This document shows positions 3,575 through 51,065 of a stretch of 64,000 bases of DNA, piece by piece. This DNA is from Polymyxa betae. Its lineage: Eukaryota; Endomyxa; Phytomyxea; Plasmodiophorida; Plasmodiophoridae. Location: NCBI GenBank assembly GCA_003693705.1, contig RBZT01000667.1, positions 39,405 to 103,404 of the forward strand. The letters run 5' to 3'. Numbering within the stretch: position 1 is the first letter of the stretch; every line of letters begins with the position of its first letter. A program made the translations under genes and the position numbers. The notes below the pieces were generated by a model that had not been told where the DNA came from, made no database searches, and saw nothing but the letters and a program-made list of their open reading frames with translations.

Positions 3575-5761
3575 CGACAGTTCTTGATCAAATTGATGCG
3601 GTAGCATCTCCAATTCATGGCCGAATTTGACCTATTGTCTACTTTGCATGCTCGATAAAACTATTAAGCACATAAGGCGAATCAGACGAGTTATGCCAAA
3701 AAGAGCTTTTTATTGAATTGAATGAGACGAATCCCATAGAAAGAAAGTGGCCAATTCGTTACGAACCGAATACGGGAACGGTTCACAAATCTGAACACAG
3801 TATCAATACACCAGCCAGATAATATATAAAGGAATTTTTCAAAGGATGGATAATCAGATTTAAAAAGCTCGTTTTTGTTAGTCAGCAACGAAAATTAGGT
3901 ATTGGACTTGCTTTTTCATCATGAAAAAAAAATTCGAAAGTAACGACTTACCAAACTTTCAACTTTGATGTTAATGATGCTAGATTTTATCCGCCGTTTC
4001 AACCAGGCACACCAGTAACAGATCACCTAAAGGGAAAACGTCAGAAAATGCACAAGCTTCGAGAAAGAAACCCGCAAAGGGAAAAATCAGAAGGAAGGCA
4101 ACATTTGTTTGATCAACACATTGGAATAAATTTAGACTTAGACACATTAAAATGATTCATCACATGGAAGCCAACATGAAAACGTTCCAGTTCATACCAT
4201 GATGGAGAGGACCACCAAGCGAAAATGTTGATGCAACAGAAAAGACCCTAGATTAAAATTTCAATTGAAAAGTCTTATACAGAAAAAGCAAAACTCAGAT
4301 GTGGAAACTCAGAGATCTTGGTGGAATCGTGTCATCAAATAGATTCAAGAGTAGCAAATATATAGAATACATCATCAAAATATCGGAAAAGGAAAGTCAT
4401 AACATACCGACAGAATATCTAGCCAGATCTCAGAATACGTACATCTCGCTGTTAGCGAATCTAAGAGCCAATAAGTGAAACTGAAAAAGGGACAATAAAT
4501 CCAAAATGATCAAGAAAAGACTCAGAAACGAGGAATTCACGTCTGTCCACATTCATATCTCTCGGAACAGGTCTGTGTCTAGGAACTCATCACCGCCAAC
4601 AACCAAAAACAATAAAAACACTGACAACGCACCTTCATTGGTTGATCAATGAAATTCGAGTGGCACTTCGCAGACACCAGGGTGCCAGAACTCTAAGACA
4701 AACTGTTACTGGACCAGCATCACGATGTCATGATTGCAAAATAAAACTTGAAATCAGAGTATAAAACATCGACAGAATATCGGGTTTGTAAGATCCGATT
4801 CCGACCGCCCGTCTAAGACGAGAATCATCCCGATAAAAAGAGAAACGTGATTCCCAGTACCTATAAACACCACATTAGTCGATTGCAACCAAAAATAGGT
4901 GCATTGAAATTAAGAAAAAGAATCAGAAAGTTTTGGTATATGGTTTGTCTCCAAAATGATTGCAGAAGCAGAACTGAATTGACATCATGTAAATCAGAAA
5001 GCGGAATATGAAAGCACTACCTTGAAAGAGAGCGTGTGGACCGACAAGAGTATTAATATCGTATGCCATAATAAATGCCTAGAGTGACGTCAGAAAGAAT
5101 AACCACATGCGAATGCTGGAAAATGAAAGAAAATGTTCAATCATAGCGCAATGGTTCCTGCTGGCTGCAGGCATTGCAACTCCAAATGTTCATGTATCGA
5201 AAATCACTTGGGGAAAGAATATAATCATATTGAAACTTAACAATTTTAAACAAGTTTACCTTTACATGGATTGAAATTGGCGGGAATGTGCCGGAATAGT
5301 AGAGATTTCCATGGTTAGATTGCAGCGATTAGGAAGTCAGAAGACAGACTATCTGTAATGATGTTAACATATGGCATGATCATACAGCGTAACAGTGAAA
5401 CAAGTTCAATCATAGCGCAATAGATCCTGCTGGCTGCAGGTATTGCTGTTCCAAATGTTCATGTATCGAAAATCACTTGGGGAAAGAAATGTAATCATAT
5501 TGAGTAAATGTAACAAACAAAGAGAAGAGTACCTGATAGATATAGATTCCATCGACACATTCATGGCGTCAATAACGACAGTATGAACAAACATGTGTCG
5601 AATGAACGACCAGATTGGAGAATGAAGAAGAAGCCATTTGGTAGCCCTGGATATGGAGCAGATCCCCAAAGGTCCGTCACGGACTCCGCTGATGAGGACC
5701 TTAGAGCAATGCGCATATAGCTGATTCGCAACCAATAAATCAAAAACGTTGAATTTTTTTT
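3575..5761. other. AT-rich intergenic region, no recognised gene
   Basis: About 2.2 kb lie between the convergent BRCA1-like and DGAT2 genes. The + strand is A-rich, and short motifs such as cagaatatc and atcagaa recur. Open frames are short. A minus-strand frame at 5406-5735 is open for 109 codons, but I see no known domain in it. The duplicated block at 5135-5503 is listed separately. The region may hold a non-coding transcript or a decayed element. Confidence 0.4.
5135..5503. repeat. Duplicated block of about 100 bp, two direct copies
   Basis: Copy A (5135-5233) and copy B (5404-5503) align almost without gaps and differ at scattered bases. Each includes tcatagcgcaat, ctgctggctgcagg and ccaaatgttcatgtatcg. 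About 170 bp of unrelated sequence separates them. On the minus strand both keep a short frame ending at the same TGA. This could reflect old coding sequence or chance. Confidence 0.8.
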
Positions 5762-6937
5762 TTATTTGTGAATTTTTAAGGTGTCTTTAGGATCGCGAGC
5801 ATAGTCAGCTTTGTGACGATTGAACAGATTCTCTAACTCATTGACATAAATATCAAAATATTTATCAACTTCCGCTGCAGTTGGATTCGGAATCTTTGGA
5901 AACTGAATCGGCTTTCCTACAACCGACACCAAATCGACATTCCAATCTGGGAGAACCAGGTATTTGGACCAGAACAGAACTGTCATATAAAATTATACAC
6001 CCTTATGTTTAACTGCAATTTTGCTTTTACCTGCAGGCAATCTCCATTTGTTTAGCCATAAACGGAAATCAAGCAATCCTTCGAATGACTTATATGTAAG
6101 TTCCTCTCCAAACGTATACACTGGGCTAACTTGATATCCATAACGGAGAGCGTAAACAATAAACCCCTTGCGGTTTTTCAAATATACCTAATAAATCCTA
6201 AGTTATGTTTCCGGTGCAATTCATAATTCCTACTTGGTGCTGTCCATATCGGTAGACAGTGGCTTCTTCAAACCCGCCAGGGATCAATGCGACGTTCTCT
6301 CCGTTTCTCATCAGTTTTTGAGTGTGATGTTTGCTAACTTCACCGCCTCTCTGCCATTTGACAAGCTCTGACAGTACTATGACAAGTTAGAGCATTCATG
6401 ACGAATATGCGATTGTGCTCAAACCTGGCAGGTTATTCATCCACCAAGCTCCCAACCAGTTATATGGACCACGTTGCTCTAAATCCCAACTGACATTACC
6501 ATTAACAGTCCATCCAATACATAGCAACCCGTGTGGATGCCATGACAGAAGATGATTGGTCATCTGATCGCATTCGTTGTCCTCAAAAACCAGTTTCTCA
6601 GTTCGAAAATATTGGTATTTCTTTGCAAGCTGTAACGATTTTAAATGTCACGTCGCCAGCTAATAGCATTGAGGCATACTTTCATACTGGTTTTTCGAAA
6701 TCTTTCCCAAGGCTTTCTTGGGAAGAAATGACGATAAATTCTATATAAAAGCATGGCTATGTGGAGACGATAATCGCCCCAGAGAACGATACTGAGGACA
6801 AGCCAAGCAGGCAACGACGCGACGCAAAGCCAGATGAGGATAAAGCCGCCGAGATGCAGCACGCTGATCACTTTCGGCGTCATGACCCACGACCAGACCA
6901 TTTGTAAAATCGATGAATCCGATCCAAGGAGGGCCAT
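5762..6937 (-). CDS. DGAT2: Diacylglycerol O-acyltransferase type 2 (DGAT2/MOGAT family)
   Basis: ER membrane enzyme that transfers acyl-CoA to diacylglycerol, making triacylglycerol for lipid droplets. Five exons read on the minus strand (6680-6937, 6425-6629, 6234-6376, 6031-6187, 5762-5979) sum to 981 nt, or 326 aa, with introns of 46-51 nt all in frame. Hydrophobic segments lie near residues 15-60. The catalytic HPHG motif is at about residues 117-120 (SWHPHGLLCIG). Further family blocks are RNGENVALIPGGFEEA, NRKGFIVYALRYG and SPVYTFGE. The length matches the family. The ATG at 6937 was taken because it precedes the first membrane segment. The gene converges on the repeat-bearing intergenic region. 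Confidence 0.93.
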
Positions 6938-21100: not shown

Positions 21101-23745
21101 TAGTGTCTGGGTTCTGGTCGCAAATGCTGCATCCAGGTTAGCATTAGTTCAGTTCCCAACGCTTTTCCAGAATCGGTTTCTCTAGATCAGAATTGGTGGA
21201 TTCTGCTTCAGAGCACAATAACGGCAGCGGCTCTTGTCACTTTTGTAATTCGTTCGTTTATTTTCAACAATATGACTGTTCGCGCTGGTCGGCTTTTACA
21301 TGATACTCTGTTCGAGCGGATTGTGAGAGCACCTGTACCGATATTCTATGGTCAGCAGTCAAGAGCATTGGTGTGTTCTCTTTCCCCTAATGCGAACAGA
21401 TATCACTCCAATTGGGCGCGTTGTGAATCGGTTTAGCAAAGATATGGACCAAATTGATGTTTCAATTTCAGACTTTTTAGGTTCGTCGATTTAATCGCAA
21501 ATTTTGCCAACATCATCTGATTATGTACTTGACAGGGCAGCTGTTATTATATGGGTTGACTTTAGGTCTGATATGATATTCGTGCACTCTACGTACTCTA
21601 ACGCTGGGACTCAGTGATTTCGGTTCTACTTAGTTGCTACGCACTCCCATGGTTCATCCTTCCGCTTGTGCCAATAATGGCTTTCTTTTATTGGATCCAG
21701 CGATACTTCCGTTATAGCAGTAGGCAACTTAAGCGTATCGAAGGGACCTCACGCTCACCAATTTTCTCAAAATTTGAAGAAACGTTGACAGGTAACTATG
21801 TTAGAATGTTAGAACTTTCTGGGCGGCAGTGTCATTGCTGTATACAGGTTTGGCCACGATTCGTGCCCATCGGAAACAGCTCGAATTTACCCATGAGGCT
21901 GAGCACACTATTGAACGAAATAGCCAGGCTCTACTGGCCAATGTAAAGTTGGCGATCTATTTGTGATAGAATGACAAACACATTCTAGCAACTAGCTGGA
22001 AGATGGTTGGCACTGCGACTTGACCTGGTTTCGAACTTGGTCATTGCTGGAGTTGCAGTTGCGATCGCATCGATTAGCTGCTCTGTTGATTTAGCAATCG
22101 CCATTGTTGCTCTGGTTCAAGTGTGATCTTGCCGAAACCTTTCATTTTCAACGAACGTCATTGCCGACTTAGGTCACGCAACTAACAGGGATGCTGCAGT
22201 GGACTGTTCGTGTGTCGACTGAAGTTGAGAACAATGTTATTATGTATTTACAGTTAAAGTGGCTTCCTGATTTCTTCCAGATGACTGCAGTTGAGCGCGT
22301 TTTAGAATATACAGATGTGGCTCCAGAAGCCCCGTCAACGACACCAAACGACCCTGATGAATCTTGGCCGAACAAGGGAGAAATCGTACTTCGAAATCTT
22401 GTATGGCAATTCTTCACTGTCTAGCTACTGCCTTTAATTTACCCGAACAGCGAGCTCGATATCGACCAGAATTACCTTTGGTTTTGAAAGGAATTAACGC
22501 TCATATCAAGTCGATGGAAAAGGTTGGCATTTGTGGCCGAACTGGTATCATTTCTGAAATTGATCTGTGATATGCGATAATCTGTTTCTCAAGGATCCGG
22601 AAAATCGTCCTTGCTGTTGTGCTTACTAAGAATGATTGAACGAGACCCTTCCGGGGGACCAATCATTATCGACGATGTTCCTACCGATACTATTGGATTA
22701 CATTGTTTGCGATCGCGGATCAGTGTTATCCCTCAAGACGCTGTGCTATTTTCTGGTACGATTAGACAAAATCTTGATGTCTGTAAAGGTTGCTCTATTT
22801 TTTGTGTTCTTTACTGATATGTATAGCCGTTTAATGAGCGAACTGATGAAGAAATAACCGAATCGTTGCGACATGTATATTTCATTTCAGATCGAAGCAG
22901 TGTGTCATTAGATGATATGGTTGCTGAAAGAGGCTCAAATTTTAGCTTCGGGCAACGTCAGTTGATTGTCAGCCACGTTAACTTCTTGGTAGTCGATATA
23001 TTTTACTAATATGCATTGTAGTGCATCGCCAGGGCATTTTTACGACGCTCGAAGATTATTATCTGCGATGGTAATAATAGTGTAATTGCTGCAGCTTAAT
23101 TTACATTATTTTTTAGAGGCTACATCGGGAATTGATTCCAAGACGGATGAATTGATTCAAGCAGCAATACGATCACTGTTCAGTAAGTCAATCGTACTCA
23201 GACTGCAAAGAAATCAAAATGGATTCAAAGAGAGACAAACCGTAATCACAGTTGCTCATCGTCTTGAAACAATTGCGGATTCTGACCGAATTATGGTTAT
23301 TCGGGAAGGCATTGTTGAAGAATTTGATACACCACAGAATCTCATTGGTATTCGTAACTATTTGTGCAAACATAACGACTATAACCGCTTACAGACAATC
23401 CTAATGGATACTTCCGACAGATGGTGGAAAGTGTGGGAGAATCTGCAGTTGAGCGGTTCAAGGCCATCACCAAAAAGAATATATTTACTAATCATGCTGA
23501 TTAAAAATGTACAATCTCGTGCATTACTTGATAGCGATGCAGAACGGCTTTGAAAAAATTTCGTCTTTTCCGAATTTGTTCCAAGAATATTGCTCTAACA
23601 GGATTATAAGCAATCTGAAGCGTTACTCGCATCTTCTAGTAACGGGTATCAACATTCGAATATTCAGCCTTTAAGCGTTTTGAACCCGTTTGATTGCCAT
23701 GGAGATAATTTAGCAGGCAACGAAACTGATTCTACAGCCCAGTAG
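18187..23745 (+). CDS. ABC transporter, subfamily C (MRP-type), two TMD-NBD halves
   Basis: A membrane exporter of organic anions or glutathione conjugates, by family. Many short exons give a full transporter. The N-terminal cytoplasmic stretch is [22 protein letters not shown]1 includes [16 protein letters not shown] and [19 protein letters not shown] (intron from about 19232). NBD1 has Walker [10 protein letters not shown], the loop [10 protein letters not shown], signature LSGGQKAR and Walker [16 protein letters not shown]2 follows. NBD2 has Walker [26 protein letters not shown], a signature-like FSFGQRQL, Walker B IIICDEATSGID and [10 protein letters not shown]. The junctions around both NBDs splice in frame. 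The start at 18187 has an excellent context (CCACCATGG), but a one-base frame change seems needed near 18265-18280. The last exon probably ends at the TAG at 23743-23745. NBD1 Walker A has Ala for the usual fourth-position Gly. Confidence 0.85.
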
Positions 23746-24101
23746 ATTAAAACTCATTTATCAATAATTGCAAACTAAGTAAACACATTCTTAATCCTGT
23801 GAATGCGTATAATAGCCCAATGCTCATACCACAGACGCTTTTGATGTCTCTGTACGATGGCTAGTCGTCTAATGGAGGCTAACGTACAGTATATCGCGTG
23901 CAGAATTAAATAGCTGTACTTGTTAATAAATTAAAACTGTTCCATCAGTGGGCTGCGCCATACAAAGTTGACCCCCTGTCCTTACAAAGTTCATCCTGCG
24001 CAGCCCCTCTTTGGTACACTGGCGGGTGTTCCGTATGCCGTGGCGGTGTGTTCCAGGTCGTGCCGGGACCTTCGTGGTACGAACGCGCCAAATTTCAAAC
24101 G
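23746..24101. other. Intergenic region between ABCC transporter and Rep gene
   Basis: There is no open frame of note. The first 200 bp are AT-rich like the rest of the genome. From about 23950 the composition changes abruptly to GC-rich, which may mark the boundary of the inserted Rep segment. The inverted and direct repeats at 23950-24006 are listed separately. Confidence 0.5.
23950..24006. repeat. 9-bp GC-rich inverted repeat enclosing two 9-bp direct repeats
   Basis: Arms gggctgcgc (23950-23958) and gcgcagccc (23998-24006) are perfect reverse complements with a 39-nt loop. The loop holds two direct copies of tacaaagtt (23961-23969 and 23983-23991), spaced 22 bp apart. It lies 95 bp upstream of the Rep start. 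CRESS-DNA replicons carry a stem-loop origin with short iterons beside rep. The loop here is longer than usual and I see no canonical nonanucleotide, so a relic origin is only a possibility. Confidence 0.5.
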
Positions 24102-25505
24102 ATGCGCTTTCTCGATGATGAGGCCGATGAGGTTGAAGTCGATCGTGAGGCCGTGGAGGCTGGTGATGAGGGCGATTTGACTACGACGAAGGCGCGGTCA
24201 ATGGTGTTTACTTTCCATGTGAATCAAGAAATTTGGCTGGATGGTGTTAACATGGGCCCGGCTCCGGTTGATGGCGTTCCTGATCCGGAGGTTTTGCTGC
24301 GGTCGTTGCCGGCGAAGTATCTCGTGTGGGGCCGCGAGGTCGCCCCCGAGACCGGCGCTTTTCATCTCCAGGGTTATGTCCAATGGCGGAGCCCGATGTC
24401 GTTTAAGTCCGTACATAATAAGTTAAAGCCCTACAAGGTTTGGCTGAAAAGGGCTTACGGCAATGCCGCGGCGAACCGCGAGTATTGCACGAAGTCCGGC
24501 GATTTCGTGGAGGTGGGCAAGCGTCCTCCCGACGGGTCCGTCGAAGGCGGTACCCGTTGGGAGGAGGCGGTTGAGCTTGCCCGCTGCGGTCGAATCGACG
24601 AGGTCGATGCTCAAACGCTCGTTACGTGTGTTCGTTCGCTCGAGCGAATCGAGGAGCGACACATGTTTCTGTCGCGGAAGTTGTCGATTCTTGCTGAATC
24701 GCGTAACGTTTGGGTCGTCGGCCCGACTCGGTGCGGCAAGTCGTCGATTCTGACGCGTTTATTTCGGTACGTCATTGACTCTGCATTGATATGGAGTCCA
24801 CAATGATAAGGAGTCCACAGGACTGAGGATGTGTATCGTAAGATACACAATAAAAACTGGTGTAACTACCGCCAGCAGCCGGTGGTGTTGTTGGACGATA
24901 TTGACGCCCACGGCTTTGGCAAGTGGGGTTTACATCATCTTAAACACTGGACGGATTTTTATCCGTTTCCGGCCGAACGCAAGTTCGGGAATGTGTTTAT
25001 TCGCCCGCTGCACTTTATTATCACTTCGAATGTTTCTCCAAAAGATGTGTTCGAAGATGTTCCCGCGGATCATCTTGCTGCGGTGTTGGCCCGCTTTAAG
25101 ATCATCAATCTCTACGATTGTCCGGGCAATCCGGCGTTTTGCGGGTGTGCGGTTCACCACCGGAACCTGTACCCTAAAGCAAGCTTGCGGCGGTTTGTCC
25201 TGGAAACTGTGGATTGGTTTCGTTGGGACTCAACCGACAACACCGTCAACTGTGATTATGCGGATGATGATCCATTCTTCCGGCAACCAGAACCCGTCGA
25301 TCTAATGGAGTTGGTCGGCAGCAGTGCAGGCTTGCGGTTTGTCGACCGCCGGCCGCGTGTTGATCCTGCTGTTGTCCCGGGTGATCCAGTGGAGGCTCCT
25401 GTGGCGGATCCTGAGGCGGAGACTCAGGAGTCTATGGATCCTGCTGGTGAAGCGGTTGTGGCGCTGTCGCAGTTAGGGGTTGTTGTAGCAGTGGCCGGTC
25501 AATAA
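24102..25505 (+). CDS. CRESS-DNA type replication-associated protein (Rep), intron-containing, nuclear copy
   Basis: The gene encodes a rolling-circle initiator of the single-stranded circular DNA virus/plasmid type, in chromosomal context. Exons 24102-24766 and 24821-25505 leave 449 continuous codons. The HUH endonuclease domain shows motif I (FTFHV, about residues 36-40), motif II (HLQGY, 88-92) and motif III (YCTK, catalytic Tyr 128). The SF3 helicase shows Walker A (GPTRCGKSS, 207-215), Walker B (VVLLDDID, 243-250), motif C (FIITSN, 287-292) and an arginine-finger-like ARFK. All key residues are present. The C-terminal 90 residues are acidic and Pro/Ala-rich and unlike known Rep tails. 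Codons are visibly richer in G and C than in neighbouring genes, suggesting transfer. No capsid gene is nearby. An alternative start is the Met at 24201. Whether it is expressed or active is unknown. Confidence 0.9.
24767..24820 (+). other. 54-nt intron within the Rep gene
   Basis: It begins GTACGT and ends CCACAG. Removal keeps the phase (54 is a multiple of 3) and eliminates an in-frame TGA at 24804-24806. It lies between Walker A and Walker B, where an uninterrupted helicase is expected. Its size and ends match host introns in this window. It contains a 10-bp direct repeat, ggagtccaca, at 24793-24802 and 24810-24819, the second copy abutting the acceptor. Confidence 0.8.
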
Positions 25506-25615
25506 TACACGGTGCATCATCGGGTCGTTTTCCCGCGCCTTAAGCTGCAGTGTGTTAGCGTTTCATGTGCAGTTGCAGTGTAGTTCGCGGGTCGTACCGA
25601 TCGGATAACTCCTCC

Positions 25616-25722
25616 ACTGGATACCAAGTTTAAGGTTAGTTGATCTCCACTGGAGCTTTTTTAATAACACCTTTACTGGATACCAAGTTTAAGGTTAGTT
25701 GATCTCCACTGGAGCTTTTTTA
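25616..25722. repeat. Direct duplication of 48 bp, period 59
   Basis: Copies at 25616-25663 and 25675-25722 are essentially identical (actggataccaag ... ggagcttttt). Copy 2 contains the last codons and stop of the Rrn5-like gene, on the minus strand. Copy 1 is an extra copy placed toward the Rep gene. The arrangement suggests local duplication of a host gene end at the junction with the Rep segment. Confidence 0.85.
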
Positions 25723-26549
25723 TACTTTTTACGGGCATTTAACTGGGGACAGCTCGATCCTTCTTTCTGGAAGAGGACTTTCATTTGATTCAAAGCCATC
25801 ATAACCATATCATTCGTGACAGCTGCTCTATGTATAGGTCCTTGGTTCAAAATCAAAGGATTTGCAGAACTGATTGATGAGACAAGTCTGATAAGTTCCC
25901 GAATGTAATTGAGCAGATAATGAAGGACTTGAACTGAGACGATCTCCAAGCTTTCATCATCAGGTAAATTGAATCGCTTCTGAGCGTTGGTCCAGTTAAT
26001 GATAGAATTGAGACTTCTGTCATACTCTAATCGTTCCTGTGGTACATCGAATGCCGTATCGGAAGAATTGCATTCTGAAATTGTCTCAGACGATTGAGTG
26101 GATGACGTTAAGCAATCGTCTTCATTGCTAGGATAACCAAACCTTAGAGGTTCTTTCTTGGGCTTAGCAGATTGGCAGTGAAGTGTCGAGATGTAATTCA
26201 TTATTTGAAGTACATTACGCTCTGGAAGAAGTTGACAGATTTTATCAGTATTGCCGGGACCAAATCGTTTGATGCCAAAAATGAGTCGGTTCTTCTCCTC
26301 AGCCGTCAGCTGTGGAATCCTAAAGCAGGATATGGGATTCTCGTCATTATCCAGGTCATCCGATAGATAATCGCAAGGCTCCAGAGCGAAACTGTCGCCG
26401 CTGGTTGACAGATCCGAAGCGAACCCTTCATCAGATTCTTGATCCCGACTAGAATCTGAGCATGGTGGCCGCCTTCGAGGTATGGCTTGCAGAGGCTCTT
26501 GCAAAGAAAGCCTCTTATCCAAGTTCGATGATCGCGACGAAGTTGCCAT
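25695..26549 (-). CDS. SANT/Myb-like protein, possibly RNA polymerase I factor Rrn5
   Basis: Single-exon frame of 284 aa from the ATG at 26549. The first 75 residues are acidic, Ser-rich and probably disordered. A SANT-like three-helix unit follows at about residues 80-128 (LTAEEKNRLIFGIKRFGPGN...). In the C-terminal half, two helical segments (VLHYLLNYIRELIRLVSS and NDMVMMALNQMK) resemble a histone-fold half. Fungal Rrn5, part of the upstream activating factor for rRNA transcription, has this SANT plus histone-fold-like order. That match is from general resemblance only; other SANT-domain chromatin proteins remain possible. It is divergent from the HFM1 gene (196 bp apart). Its last codons lie inside the 48-bp duplication. 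Confidence 0.45.
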   Translation of the reverse strand: MATSSRSSNLDKRLSLQEPLQAIPRRRPPCSDSSRDQESDEGFASDLSTSGDSFALEPCDYLSDDLDNDENPISCFRIPQLTAEEKNRLIFGIKRFGPGNTDKICQLLPERNVLQIMNYISTLHCQSAKPKKEPLRFGYPSNEDDCLTSSTQSSETISECNSSDTAFDVPQERLEYDRSLNSIINWTNAQKRFNLPDDESLEIVSVQVLHYLLNYIRELIRLVSSISSANPLILNQGPIHRAAVTNDMVMMALNQMKVLFQKEGSSCPQLNARKKYKKAPVEIN

Positions 26550-39974: not shown

Positions 39975-40111
39975 ATTGGTAAGGCCATAACCTGCTCCTA
40001 CAAACAAGGTCACTTCTTGAAGTAACAACGCAAGGTAACACCATTGGTAAGGCCATAACCTGCTCTTTACAAACAAGGTCACTTCTTGAAGTAACAACGC
40101 AAGGTAACACC
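39975..40111. repeat. Tandem duplication, unit 68-69 bp
   Basis: Copy 1 (39975-40042) and copy 2 (40043-40111) abut directly and differ at one or two positions (ctccta versus ctcttta). This near-identity points to a recent duplication. It lies 46 bp upstream of the IAH1-like start codon and so in its probable promoter or 5' leader. Confidence 0.9.
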
Positions 40112-45451: not shown

Positions 45452-48400
45452 TTATTTATTTTGTCTACTTTGTTTATCAGCAGCATCCAATTTATGCTTT
45501 ATTTGAATTGTTCCGCTCACACCAAATATGAAAGCCGTGCAAGCCCATATACCTGCTGTGACAGCCCCAATGAAGACCATTATTCCGGTTTTCTCCCAAA
45601 GCAGAATGCAGCAAGCAAAGAATTTAAATGCTGTTAGAAAATACAGCAACAATGATGTGCTGTTGATAAACAGGCCTAACGGCATAAGAACTGCAGACAG
45701 CGGTAATGCCAGTTGAATGGAACTGGGCATTGGCACTTTGTGGCCTGAGAGTGCATTAATGCCGATATTTAGAATACTGGACAAACCAGAAACCTAATGG
45801 CATAGTAAAATTAGTAGTTCAAGTTAGGAGATAGAAGGTAGCTTACAATAATCGAGGTCATTAAGGCTGTGTTGTCATTGAGCATAAAGAACAACACAAG
45901 GACGACATAGATGACAATACCAACTCCAGTTCCATTTAGAACCGATATAAACCCCCCTATTGCCCCGACCAGGATTAGATCAAATCGGGTATGAAGGCTG
46001 GATCGAATTGGCCCGTTATGTGAGGCATTGTTGAAGGTCAATTTGACGCAAATGATGCCAGAAGAAAGACCAAATGTGATAGCTGCAAGAATAATGACAA
46101 CTGTATCATACTTTAGCATCTCCGGCACAGCATTCCAGATATTTAGCAGGGATGCCAGAGCCGCACCTAATGTCGAAAAAGCAACCACAGACCACTCCAC
46201 AGGCTGTCCTGTCAGAATAATGCAAATTGTAGAAGCTAAAGCTGCTACAGAATTCAAATGAATGATCATGTTTCGTGTTATGAAACGATCAAATGACATT
46301 AATGGATACGAAAGTATTGCAGCGTCGATTGGGGCCATTCCAGCCAGTAAAGAGCCTATTGCTAGAATTAAATCGCTGCCAATATCGAACGAATTGAATT
46401 TCAAGGATGACGGATAGGCTTTCAGAACGATAAATAACGTGGGAATAACTGATAGAGCATAGGCAATAAAAGGATGGGAGCGTAAACAGCCATGAAATTG
46501 GCTGATCGATGAAATTCGATTGTATCGAAGACGTTCCCGACGCCGTTTTAAGCGAGCTTTATGCGCTGCTAAAGCAGCAACATTTCGATCATCAAAGTCA
46601 ACGATCAGTTGATCTTCCTCATTAGCATGCGCTAACTGATCCACATTCTCTTCCTGGCCCGCAAAATCCGCCTCTAACGTATTCGAATTTGGCAGTAACT
46701 GAAGCAAATCGGAAGATTCGCTAAATTCTTTGGTGACCACAAGCAGCGCGGGACGAATTAGAAAAATGTAAATGACGATATTGACCACAGCCAAGAGACT
46801 TCCCAAGACCGCATCTAAAATAGTGGCTTTAACCGCATTTGATGCAATATAATTCTCTTCAAGACGAACAAGCTCCAATACAGCTGGCCGAAGGAACTCG
46901 TTCTCGAGACGGAACAAATCTGTCATCGACTCGGTAGAAAACAAAGAAACTACAGAATCCTTCGAATGGGAAGAGAACGTGTCTAGAACATTTCTTTCTA
47001 AAGAGAGAAACTCGACGAACACGGAATGAAGACCATTCAGCGCAACACCCCATCTAAACGTAGCACAGTCCGAAATTGCAGACATTGATGGCAGAGAGCA
47101 ACTGGATTGATGAAAATCAATAACGCGTTGTGATTCTCCATTTACAGGCTTACATGCTGTTAAACTGAAGATTGAAGAACTCGTTAGAGCCTGATAGACG
47201 GTCGTTCGGCAAACTTTTAGAAGAGTCGCCATACATGATGTCATTCATTAGATCTGATGTTGAGGCTATATAGGATAATAATAATGATGGAGATACGCTT
47301 TTTGTGTTATTTACAACGACCTGATTTAAGGTGAGAAACGACCGCCTAATGAGATACTCCTGAAAAATGTAATTCAAAAGCTCGTTATGATGTGACGAAT
47401 CAGTGACTGACCTCATAACGTATCCAATTGATTTCTTCCGGCAACGTTTTGCCATCGTTAGAGATGGATATCATTACCACCACATTGGTAGTCACTACTG
47501 CTGCATAAAGTGAAGCCATTGCTAAAACGAATGTCGCAAGTTGTGTACAATGCTTCTTCTTATCTCGATTCGAGGCAGCAAGCAATTGTTGTGGATCGAA
47601 TCTAAGATTTGAGCTTGCTGGTTTTATCACGGATTCATCTCGCTTTTTGTTAATCGATGCATTATTAAATGATTCGTTTGGGCCATCGGTAAGGGTTTGT
47701 AACCGAAATAAGCACGTTTGAGTGAGATTCACTAAAACGATTCGTGGAATCTGCAAAAGTTGCAGCAGGGCTTGATCTTTTTCATCTAAAGAGGATATTA
47801 AGGCTGGTCTTAATAAGAACATTGACAGCATAAAGAGGGCGATGCACGCTGATATGGGTAGTATTATCTGCAGCATCACATACGAATTCGTCAGTGAAAG
47901 CGATTGTGTAATGAATGCAGACGACATTTGTTGCATTAGATCTGCAACAGCGCACATAAGAGCAACTTGTTCCTGAATGCGATCCGATTTGCCAATCTCT
48001 TGAAGGCTCATATTACGTATCACTCGACTTTCAGATACCGACAGTATTAATGCATCCGTTAAGGTGGTATTAAATGATGAAACTTGAAAATCATACATTG
48101 CAGTTAATGATGGTGGCCATGACTCTTGTGAAAGCCATTCGTTAGTGTCTTTGTCAAATAACGCTTGAGAAAACAAATCAATTTGCTTCCGGGCGCTGGA
48201 TTCACCAACGGAAGATAGAATCCCGTTTGCCATAAGCTGCAAGTTGTTAATAGCTAACGACAAGCTCACCAAGTCTGAAGCTCTGGATGACGATGCCGAT
48301 ATTCGAGAGGACAGCGACTGTTGTGAAGAGACAATATCGGATTTGATGATGATTGATATAATGATTATGACCGTTAGTAGGATTACGAATAGGAAAGAGG

Positions 48401-51065
48401 CACGATATAACCAGAGCTGAACGGCACGTTCACGAATACGTTTATTCTCTAACGCATCGTTTAGGCTTGAGCGATTGGAGCTCGACACGGATGGATTGAT
48501 AGGAGTTGCGTTTTGTTTATCTCTGGTTGGGTTCACGGAAGACGATGTACTGGCATTTAATTTTTCTGATACAGCTAACACACTTCTCTCAGAATGATCG
48601 CTGCGTGATTCTGATACACTCAAGTCGCTGTGGGCCAGCGCAGACTGCTCTTCGAAATCGTCATCGTCGTCATCGGCGTTTTGGTAGATATCGTTGACAA
48701 CAGCAGCTTGCACGCTGCTTTGGAAGATTGGCTCGACAGGGAAATCACTCCTCTGGCTCGAATCGTCAGCTATGCCAGCAAGAAATGCAATTCTTGCGAT
48801 ATAGAAATAAAATGCTTCATCGCCATGAGCTTCTATTCGCTCCATTTTCACATGAGCAGATTTCTTGCTTCCATCATGTAAAGTTATAATAACTCGATTG
48901 CTTTGGTTTTGCAGAGAATCAAACTCGGGTAAAATGTCATCCAGTAAACCGCCGACGACACCACTGGGAATCCAGTTATTTACGGATTCCGAAACAGCAG
49001 TAATCACTCCGTCAGAACCAGCTACTATCAAGTTTACGGCTTCGTCATGGATAGGCTCAATAACTGCGACCAAAGATAAATGATCGCGATCGACGAATGA
49101 TTTCACATGAACAACACAGTCGATCAAATAACCTGTGTATAAACAGCAAGGGAACCTTCGGTTCGTATTTAGAACAGATCCTCGACCCGTCAGCAGGTTG
49201 CTCTGAATTACGTTGGTATGCTGAGAGCAGAATGGTTCAGGAACTATAATGCTGATGTTCTTGCCGATAATCCCAGAACCAAACAACAAGCGCATCTTCT
49301 CGTTGACAGAAAAGATTTCTCCTAAATTCTTCATTTCGCCACTACAGATAACAACGGCGTTCTCTTCATTGAACAAAATACTGGCGAAGGAATCGCCTGA
49401 CGGTTCTAATAGCTTTATGTCCTGAGCTTTTGACCGATGTAACTGGGCGCCTGTATAATCCTGCATCAAAACCTCTAGAAATCCAGCATAAGCATTCAAG
49501 GTCTTTGGCGATTGCGACCAAATTCGCAGCATGGCTTCGTAAGAACTTTTGGCGACTGTCATTTGAGAAGAAATCCGGTGAGAAGCATTTCGTAACTTAT
49601 CAGCGTTCGGGAGAGGCTGGCTTAATTCTCTCCACAACGTCAATAAAGATCGAACTAACTCAATATCGTTCTCCATTGCGCTTGAGCACAGCGAAGCATA
49701 CTGATTGTATGAAAGCACGTCGGCATTGTTGGATGATGATGATCTATATTGGCTGTTACAGTAGGAGGATTGCAGTCGCATGATCATAAACAAAAAATCA
49801 GGTCCTGATTCGACTTCGATCATTCGAGCCAAAATGGCATATGCTGGCACAAAACGTCAAAAACCGACAATAAACGGTCCAAAACATCCTCTACCTAGGA
49901 ACGGGTTGTTAAATATTGTCAAACGAAGATGGGCTGCTCGGAACATTAAGATAGCACTACTTGGAAAGCATTTTTCTGCTCTTTGTAAAATTAAATCGAT
50001 ACGGCGCAATCGTCCATCGTCTGGTAATTCCTCATCCAATGCATCCATCAGTTCAAACCGGAATTTAGCCTCGGCCAAATATGCATTTGGCAGTTGATCG
50101 TCCTGAGTATTGCGAACATACTTAATACGCACATGGACGATGAGATTAGAGAGCACTACAATCAACCAAAAAGCCCCATAAAGAATAAAAATTGCTCCAC
50201 CATCGCCAGGGTCATTCACAATGACACTGATGAATGCGGCTAAGAAGGCCCAACAGATTAATGCTAGCAGTGTGCAACGCATATGTGTCATCAGCACATG
50301 ATGATATGGAACGTATAGGAAGAAGACAATCGTGATAGATAGCGTCAAAGAAAATATGACAAAGGATACCAGAATAGCTGACAGATCGCTGGTCACTGTT
50401 AGCATCACAATAACGGCTGTACGATATGATAAATATAGAATTTCAAACCTGGAATGCGCTCGAGCCCAAGGAGACATGGATCCAAGATCATAATCGAAAA
50501 GAGTCGCCACACAAGTAAAAATTGTAGATATAAGGGAAACCGCATTCAAAAACCCAAGCAGCGACAGAATCAGAGATTGAGAGCCAGCCATCGAGAAGGC
50601 GATTCCTAAAAGTGGGAAATAGAAGACAGAGCTACATAGTGAAAGGATGAAGCGAATCGAGCGAATGAAATTAGTAGAGTTAGAGGCATGGTTGCATATT
50701 TGATAGCCCGTTAGAAATAGCAATACTGGCAAACTGGTCATAACGACAGATCCAATAGTGAAAGCATAATCCTGCCCAAAATAGGTGATTAAACAGTTCT
50801 GGTCAATCAATCGTGCTATGGCACGGATTGACACAGTATTCGTGGCGTTCCATGAAAACCGTGACGGATCGGCGGGCAAAGCCAGCGCCAACAGCTGACA
50901 GCACTCGACGACGGCAGAAACAATGGCGACCACCAGCGACGAATGACCATAATCTGCCAAAGTCAACAGCGAAAGCCGAAATAAGAATACGATTCGAGAG
51001 AGAGCATGAGACTTGGTAGCCTGCTGATGGAGTGTTGTGGGGCCAGTAGAAGACTGGTCTGGCAT
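45452..51065 (-). CDS. TmcB-like multi-pass membrane protein with PAS domain
   Basis: A very large membrane protein of a family first named from Dictyostelium Tiny macrocysts B and frequent in chytrids and ciliates. Exons 49895-51065, 47412-49843, 47235-47359, 45847-47164 and 45452-45793 total 5388 nt, or 1795 aa, all in frame. The N-terminal 330 residues hold about eight membrane segments. A TPR-like TmcB region follows (LTLWRELSQPLPN..., YAGFLEVLMQDYTGAQ). Next is a PAS domain (ENAVVICSGEMKNLGEIFSV, VNEKMRLLFGSGIIGKN), an acidic Asp/Glu patch, a membrane helix (LFVILLTVIIIISIII), an extracellular loop, and at least eight more C-terminal membrane segments. No cyclase or kinase domain is seen. 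The start is the first in-frame ATG (51065). It is probably a sensor. Confidence 0.85.

What the first reader, a model, noticed from the sequence alone, without database searches (positions are those of the whole stretch)
24102..25505. Chromosomal CRESS-DNA Rep gene with intact catalytic motifs and its own intron
HUH endonuclease motifs I-III and SF3 helicase Walker A, B and C are all present. The only interruption is a 54-nt GT..AG segment whose removal keeps the frame and deletes the in-frame stop. Endogenous Rep copies are usually broken fossils; one that is whole and has gained a host-type intron suggests long residence and selection. It may be a domesticated replication gene.
Basis: partly seen in the sequence, partly recalled or inferred. 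Interest (0 to 1): 0.9.

Follow-up and report, generated by a model that had tools for sequence, protein, structure and literature searches.

The report
Endogenous fungal CRESS-virus Rep with intron
A chromosome of a flagellated fungus carries a complete-looking replication gene left by a small circular DNA virus, interrupted by what looks like a real intron; it is one of about a dozen scattered viral remnants, so it is more likely viral debris that carried introns than a gene the fungus has put to use.

Summary
Window 24102-25505 reads as a CRESS-DNA virus Rep: HUH motifs I-III, Walker A, B and motif C are present, with one 54-nt GT..AG interruption. The domestication reading is not supported. 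The genome (24.4 Mb; chitin synthase and IFT46, hence a zoosporic fungus by inference) holds at least 13 Rep loci: nine broken or partial, four open, three of these with one short GT..AG segment at three different positions. One segment is shared by two copies in different surroundings whose exons differ almost only at third positions (23/5/140), while its interior is random. Another is a splice-site-to-splice-site copy (57 of 62 positions) of the intron of a downstream viral gene. So the introns most likely belong to the viral lineage. Low dN/dS is also found against broken copies, so it can reflect virus life. One sister locus (C88) adds a capsid piece matching the tombusvirus-type S domain (PF00729, E 6e-7), the mark of cruciviruses; two papers seen in passages (2020, 2025) give no established crucivirus host. 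Transcripts, reads across the junctions and the species could not be tested.

The parts
23950..24006 (+). 5' noncoding part of the element: hairpin with a 9-bp stem (GGGCTGCGC..GCGCAGCCC) and two ACAAAGTT direct repeats; probable remnant of a promoter/origin region
   Evidence: folds z -2.2, 5 of 200 shuffles as good (upstream stretches of C137, C106 and C88 in the same call are not clearly better than shuffles); outer stem also in C137 and C106 by eye; no NANTANTAN nonanucleotide at 23500-24101 or 25506-25760
24102..24766 (+). Rep exon 1: HUH endonuclease with motifs I, II, III and Walker A
   Evidence: PF02407 E 2e-8; PDB Rep hits; motif positions
24767..24820 (+). 54-nt GT..AG segment, predicted spliceosomal intron; holds a 17-nt x 1.9 tandem repeat and in-frame stops
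   Evidence: absent at that place in C518, C88, C106; tandem repeat; 2 of 62,000 flank windows have GTNNGT..YAG; a 35-nt probe of its 5' part occurs once in the genome with up to 3 mismatches
24821..25505 (+). Rep exon 2: SF3 helicase Walker B, motif C and C-terminal region to the stop
25510..25597 (+). 3' noncoding region shared with the C341 element (78%)
25605..25722 (+). 59-nt x 2 tandem array (TCCACTGGAT-type), probable relic of the intron of the downstream viral gene ORF2; no convincing ORF2 exon or capsid piece is found here
   Evidence: array; 25612-25714 is 80% identical to the array in the C341 ORF2 intron; tblastn of ORF2 and capsid pieces: nothing below E 0.7 in the 20 rows shown, and against 23500-26500 the best is a 14-aa match, E 0.012, in the shared 3' noncoding stretch

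Best explanation
This is an endogenous copy of the rep gene of a CRESS-DNA virus, integrated in the chromosome of a zoosporic fungus (shown by sequence; host group inferred). The virus family it came from encoded, on one strand, Rep, a second small gene (ORF2) and, at least in one sister copy, a capsid with a tombusvirus-type S domain, so it was crucivirus-like (shown for locus C88, inferred for the window). In this viral lineage several genes carry short host-type spliceosomal introns: one in ORF2 and three at different positions in different Reps; the window's is one of them (comparative evidence; splicing itself not shown). Mechanism inferred: the virus replicates in the nucleus by Rep nicking and rolling circle, is transcribed and spliced by the host, and now and then intron copies enter other viral genes without target-site duplication, as by reverse splicing; viral DNA integrates repeatedly and then decays. 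The window copy is a young or lucky integrant: Rep open, ORF2 exons and capsid gone, origin nonanucleotide not found. It may still be transcribed and spliced, but nothing here shows that the host uses it.
For: Rep identity. At least 13 Rep loci in one genome. Three intron-like segments at three places in Rep: window; C137 60 nt; C341 57 nt and C353 54 nt at one place; C502 has none in an open frame of 503 codons. C341 against C353, up to C341's frameshift: 296 codons, 93.2% amino-acid identity, differences 23/5/140 by codon position, NG86 dN 0.037 and dS 2.18, while the segment's interior aligns no better than shuffles (355 of 500 as good) and its GTAA and TAG ends are kept. Between the 7.4 kb and 8 kb held around them the only match is the Rep stretch; C353 stands near a dynein gene, C341 near a gag-like ORF (gag only E 0.045). 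C137's Rep segment matches the ORF2 intron end to end: 57 of 62 positions with C187, 56 of 62 with C73. ORF2 of C137 and C187 are 95.5% identical over 266 nt although C187's Rep piece is of the C341/C353 kind, as expected of recombining virus genomes. Origin-like TAGTATTAA/G in C137 and C518. Capsid S domain in C88.
Against: The window's own intron has no copy found elsewhere and its sister copy C518 lacks it, so gain after integration is not excluded. Four of 13 copies are open, which is many for neutral debris. The window element has no capsid, no clear ORF2 exon and no recognisable origin, so its crucivirus kinship rests on C88. Capsid support is one 111-aa piece plus an N-terminal frame shared by C88 and C73 (E 9e-33), and no relatives of that piece were found in the protein or viral collections. 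That C88's second frame is the same gene as ORF2 is weak (E 0.005 in a single comparison). No exogenous close relative was found in viral contigs.
Confidence: 0.6

Rival explanations
1. Domesticated host gene: after integration the Rep gained a host intron and is kept by selection for a host role such as interference with related viruses or a DNA-processing function.
For: Open reading frame with all catalytic motifs and a shared C-terminal motif; host-sized intron; four of 13 copies open.
Against: Low dN/dS is seen against broken copies too (window-C106 NG86 0.18, window-C518 LWL85 0.13) as against the open C137 (NG86 0.17), so it can be inherited from virus life. The window branch is not shorter than that of its frameshifted sister C518 (0.44 against 0.27 in the tree). 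No orthologue could be examined. Viral 3' sequence is still attached.
Confidence: 0.12
2. The 54-nt segment is not an intron but an insertion or duplication that has killed the gene, so this is an ordinary broken fossil.
For: It brings in-frame stops and contains a 17-nt tandem repeat; no RNA evidence exists here.
Against: GTACGT..CACAG at the alignment-defined joint with branch-like sites, 2 of 62,000 flank windows for GTNNGT..YAG; sister copies carry similar segments with stronger comparative evidence.
Confidence: 0.1
3. The intron was gained after integration without any host use: real intron, host origin, no domestication.
For: Unique to the window copy; absent from its sister C518.
Against: Two other Rep introns and the ORF2 intron appear to have been carried by the virus lineage; a neutral copy would not be expected to keep the frame on both sides.
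Confidence: 0.18

Closest known systems
Cruciviruses (CRESS-DNA Rep with tombusvirus-like capsid; PMC7468197 and PMC11832652, passages seen)
   Same: HUH+SF3 Rep; predicted introns in Rep (36 genomes in PMC7468197); NANTANTAN-type nonanucleotide in C137 and C518; capsid S domain (PF00729) next to Rep in C88; extra ORFs
   Different: Endogenous, decayed, dispersed in a fungal genome; the window copy has no capsid and no nonanucleotide; introns at lineage-specific places with an intron shared between two viral genes; no sequence match to a catalogued crucivirus was obtained
BdDV-1, endogenous DNA virus of Batrachochytrium (Clemons et al. 2024; not read; known from citing passages in PMC11115238, and recall)
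   Same: DNA virus endogenous in a chytrid genome (CRESS-like by recall)
   Different: Not compared by sequence. No M36 peptidase match in this genome (a search that rang in no control either), so the host does not look like Batrachochytrium (M36 expansion recalled)
Other endogenous CRESS Reps (CEVs; PMC6186406 passages)
   Same: Chromosomal Rep copies, some open
   Different: Here at least 13 loci of several lineages in one genome, with introns and linked ORF2 and capsid pieces
Spliced Reps of mastreviruses and genomoviruses (recalled)
   Same: Rep made from a spliced transcript
   Different: Intron positions were not compared; here they lie before HUH motif II or just after Walker A

Membership tests
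CRESS-DNA virus Rep | HUH motifs I-III with SF3 Walker A, B and motif C in one gene | tested here: met
   the two halves were searched apart; exon 2 needs the sister copies to pass
CRESS-DNA virus Rep | Origin hairpin with nonanucleotide beside rep | tested here: not met
   A hairpin is there, but no NANTANTAN at 23500-24101 or 25506-25760 and no TA[GA]TATTA[ACG] at 22500-26500. C137 and C518 have TAGTATTAA/TAGTATTAG near Rep; of these only C518's stretch folds better than shuffles. Read as loss in an endogenous copy
Crucivirus | Capsid with tombusvirus-type S domain linked to a CRESS Rep | tested here: inconclusive
   Met at C88 (PF00729, 29.9 bits, cut-off 23; PDB coat proteins only E 0.01); not found in the window
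Crucivirus | Circular genome of 2.7-5.7 kb | not testable with these tools
   only integrated, decayed copies are held
Spliceosomal intron | GT-AG ends, branch site, homologous reading resumes exactly at the joint | tested here: met
Spliceosomal intron | Spliced transcripts | not testable with these tools
   no RNA data
Introner-like element | Many near-identical copies in host genes, usually with target-site duplication | tested here: not met
   window intron probe occurs once. For the ORF2-type intron, GTCCACTGGATNTCAA with 0-1 mismatch lies on C73, C137, C187, C341 and once on C501; TAGTCCACTGGATA with 1 mismatch gave 5 single hits, as many as its control. No duplication at the C137 site by eye
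Domesticated (co-opted) viral gene | Purifying selection after integration, orthologues at the same site | not testable with these tools
   own genome only; within-genome dN/dS cannot separate virus life from host life

The most novel reading that the evidence does not exclude
A crucivirus-like (RNA-DNA hybrid) virus lineage infects zoosporic fungi and has integrated many times in this genome, giving cruciviruses a concrete host; and in its genomes spliceosomal introns move between genes, one intron having been copied intact from ORF2 into Rep, so that this locus family records recent intron transposition.
Probability: 0.4. Interest if true: 0.85.

Novelty: new variant of a known kind. Interest (0 to 1): 0.6.

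Why it matters
Cruciviruses have no established host in the two papers seen in passages (PMC7468197, 2020: no host elucidated to date; PMC11832652, 2025: no significant BLAST hits in non-viral organisms, rotifers suggested from fold). A Rep-ORF2-capsid remnant in a flagellated fungus makes zoosporic fungi a testable host. The copies also hold what looks like a young spliceosomal intron copied between two viral genes, with donor and recipient both readable. For the finding itself the lesson is a caution: an intron in an endogenous viral gene is not proof of domestication.

Tried and rejected
Introner family: rejected; the motif GTCCACTGGATNTCAA with 0 mismatches lies only on C73, C137 and C187, all viral loci, and the window probe is unique. 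dN/dS as a test of domestication: rejected, because broken copies give similar values and dS is near saturation (YN00 failed for every pair, NG86 or LWL85 for many; one row, C341/C353, was mis-framed there and replaced). Batrachochytrium as host: no M36 hit, but that search rang in no control, so it is weak. Host rRNA: RF01960 did not complete three times. Exogenous relatives: none in viral contigs with A1, A2, the capsid piece, P0003, P0004 or C502 (each by two to six peptide patterns). Protein collection: exon 1 none of 532 candidates, helicase profile 11 hits among the 8000 candidates scored, capsid piece none of 3 candidates (full-length capsids were outside its length limits). Window intron against C137 intron: interior slightly better than chance (16 of 500 shuffles as good), judged too weak for homology. 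The shuffle test (348 of 500) had one intron cut one base short; one search repeats it (355 of 500). Paper searches used 10 of 10; the search for BdDV-1 did not list Clemons et al. 2024, so overlap with it is unknown.

The helicase tree has 11 of 16 inner branches open and long branches; I use only window+C518 (100/98) and C341+C353 (97/94) from it. Rows dropped: the C418 HUH piece from A1 (stop codon), C106 from A2 (no helicase half), and C88 ends at its stop in A2 and just before it in A3.

Full report
Observation. The Rep is there at the stated coordinates. Exon 1 matches Pfam Viral_Rep above its cut-off and Rep structures in the PDB. Exon 2 alone is weak in Pfam, but with four sister copies as a profile it matches Reps in the PDB. 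All six motifs are present. The 54-nt segment 24767-24820 begins GTACGT, ends CACAG, has branch-like sites TTGAC and TTGAT and in-frame stops. In C518, C88 and C106 the homologous DNA runs on without it. Only 2 of 62,000 54-nt windows in the flanks have GTNNGT..YAG at such a joint. Introns read by eye in the neighbouring host helicase gene are 47, 51 and 48 nt.

Setting. The window is contig C135:39405-103404 of a 24.4-Mb assembly in 541 contigs. Fungal chitin synthase and the intraflagellar protein IFT46 are encoded, so I infer a zoosporic fungus; a dynein heavy chain gene stands near another copy. Host genes lie on both sides of the Rep (upstream support is only one ABC-transporter match and one TPR/MLP match, both below cut-off). 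The Rep exons have 57% and 53% GC against 39% and 44% in the flanks. The flanks matched nowhere else apart from the element's own 3' part.

Family. Rep-like sequence occurs at 13 loci: C135 (window), C106, C137, C518, C88, C418, C491, C502, C341, C353, C308, C187 and C73. Four are open: C135, C137 and C353, each apart from one GT..AG segment, and C502 without any. C502 passes the RNA_helicase cut-off but not Viral_Rep, and the C353 exon given passes neither. Broken or partial: C518 changes frame near its N-terminus, C88 has a stop near the C-terminus, C418 a stop beside motif II, C106 lacks the helicase half in place and has a C-terminal piece inverted upstream, C341 changes frame near the C-terminus, and C491, C308, C187 and C73 are fragments. 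Counts are lower bounds, as the search tool warns.

Introns. C137 has a 60-nt segment (GTATGT..TTATTAG) 13 codons downstream of the window's place by eye; C341 (57 nt) and C353 (54 nt) share one before HUH motif II, which C502 lacks. Between C341 and C353, up to C341's frameshift, the exons differ at 23, 5 and 140 first, second and third codon positions over 296 codons (NG86 dN 0.037, dS 2.18; LWL85 0.041, 1.34), while the segment's interior aligns no better than shuffles (355 of 500 as good) and its ends are kept. That is how an intron in a coding gene under strong constraint evolves. The two loci share Rep but nothing else in the 7.4 and 8 kb held, and C341 is now frameshifted, so the constraint acted before the present integrated state, most simply in the virus.

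ORF2 intron. Downstream of Rep on the same strand lies a small gene, ORF2 (no Pfam match). In C137, C341, C73 and C187 it carries a GTATGT..TAG segment built of TCCACTGGAT-type tandem units, 118, 167, 62 and 62 nt long. C88 and C418 have an open frame in that place without it, but that it is the same gene is weak (E 0.005 in a single comparison of C88 with C187). The C137 Rep segment equals the ORF2 intron from splice site to splice site (57 of 62 positions with C187, 56 of 62 with C73), and no target duplication is seen at its joint by eye. I infer that an intron was copied from ORF2 into Rep; the opposite direction is not excluded. ORF2 of C137 and C187 are 95.5% identical over 266 nt although the C187 Rep piece is of the C341/C353 kind, which points to recombination between replicating genomes. 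In the window ORF2 exons are not found, but an intron-like array survives at 25605-25722.

Capsid. At C88 the stretch after ORF2 holds a 200-aa basic and glycine-rich frame and, in another frame, a 111-aa piece that matches Pfam Viral_coat, the tombusvirus-type S domain (29.9 bits, cut-off 23), and weakly coat proteins in the PDB (E 0.01). C73 has a relative of the N-terminal frame (53% over 135 positions). A CRESS Rep with such a capsid defines cruciviruses. Origin-like TAGTATTAA and TAGTATTAG next to C137 and C518 fit the NANTANTAN pattern reported for them (PMC7468197, passages). Against it: one short piece, a single S-domain locus found in the genome, no relatives retrieved, and none of it in the window element itself, which also lacks the nonanucleotide.

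Selection. Window against C106, C137 and C518 gives NG86 or LWL85 ratios of about 0.13-0.23, but C106 and C518 are broken, and synonymous sites are near saturation. In the helicase tree the window's sister is C518 (100/98), and the window's branch is the longer of the two (0.44 against 0.27). Nothing therefore shows constraint after integration; nothing excludes it either.

Verdict. A real, open, intron-bearing endogenous Rep, but one of a family; the introns most likely belong to the viral lineage, and domestication is unproven and less likely. The more surprising content is the neighbourhood: crucivirus-like remnants in a zoosporic fungus and an intron copied between viral genes.

Noticed in passing
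L021:4509-4712 and 5714-5917 (C518): A 204-nt inverted repeat, 99% identical: the Rep 5' region and start are repeated inverted just after Rep, next to an origin-like TAGTATTAG, as if a hairpin or head-to-head dimer had integrated.
   Followed up: partly
C106:6361-6633 (-): The C-terminal part of a Rep lies inverted just upstream of the C106 Rep.
   Followed up: no
L020:5666-5844 and L036:1207-1385: C137 and C73 share 179 nt of Rep at 99.4%, which points to recent activity or recent duplication.
   Followed up: no
Rep introns of C135, C137, C341, C353: All four Rep segments have lengths that are multiples of three (54, 60, 57, 54), while the four ORF2 introns do not (118, 167, 62, 62). Unexplained, may be chance.
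   Followed up: no
window 39975-40111: A 69-nt x 2 tandem repeat, 97% matches, not near the element.
   Followed up: no
L033:1300-2388 (C308): A Rep N-terminus runs into short tandem repeats (NPKMT-type in translation) and a 98% inverted repeat of 117 nt near the contig end.
   Followed up: no
window 47400-49850 (-): A TmcB-type TPR protein (PF25474, E 2e-16).
   Followed up: no
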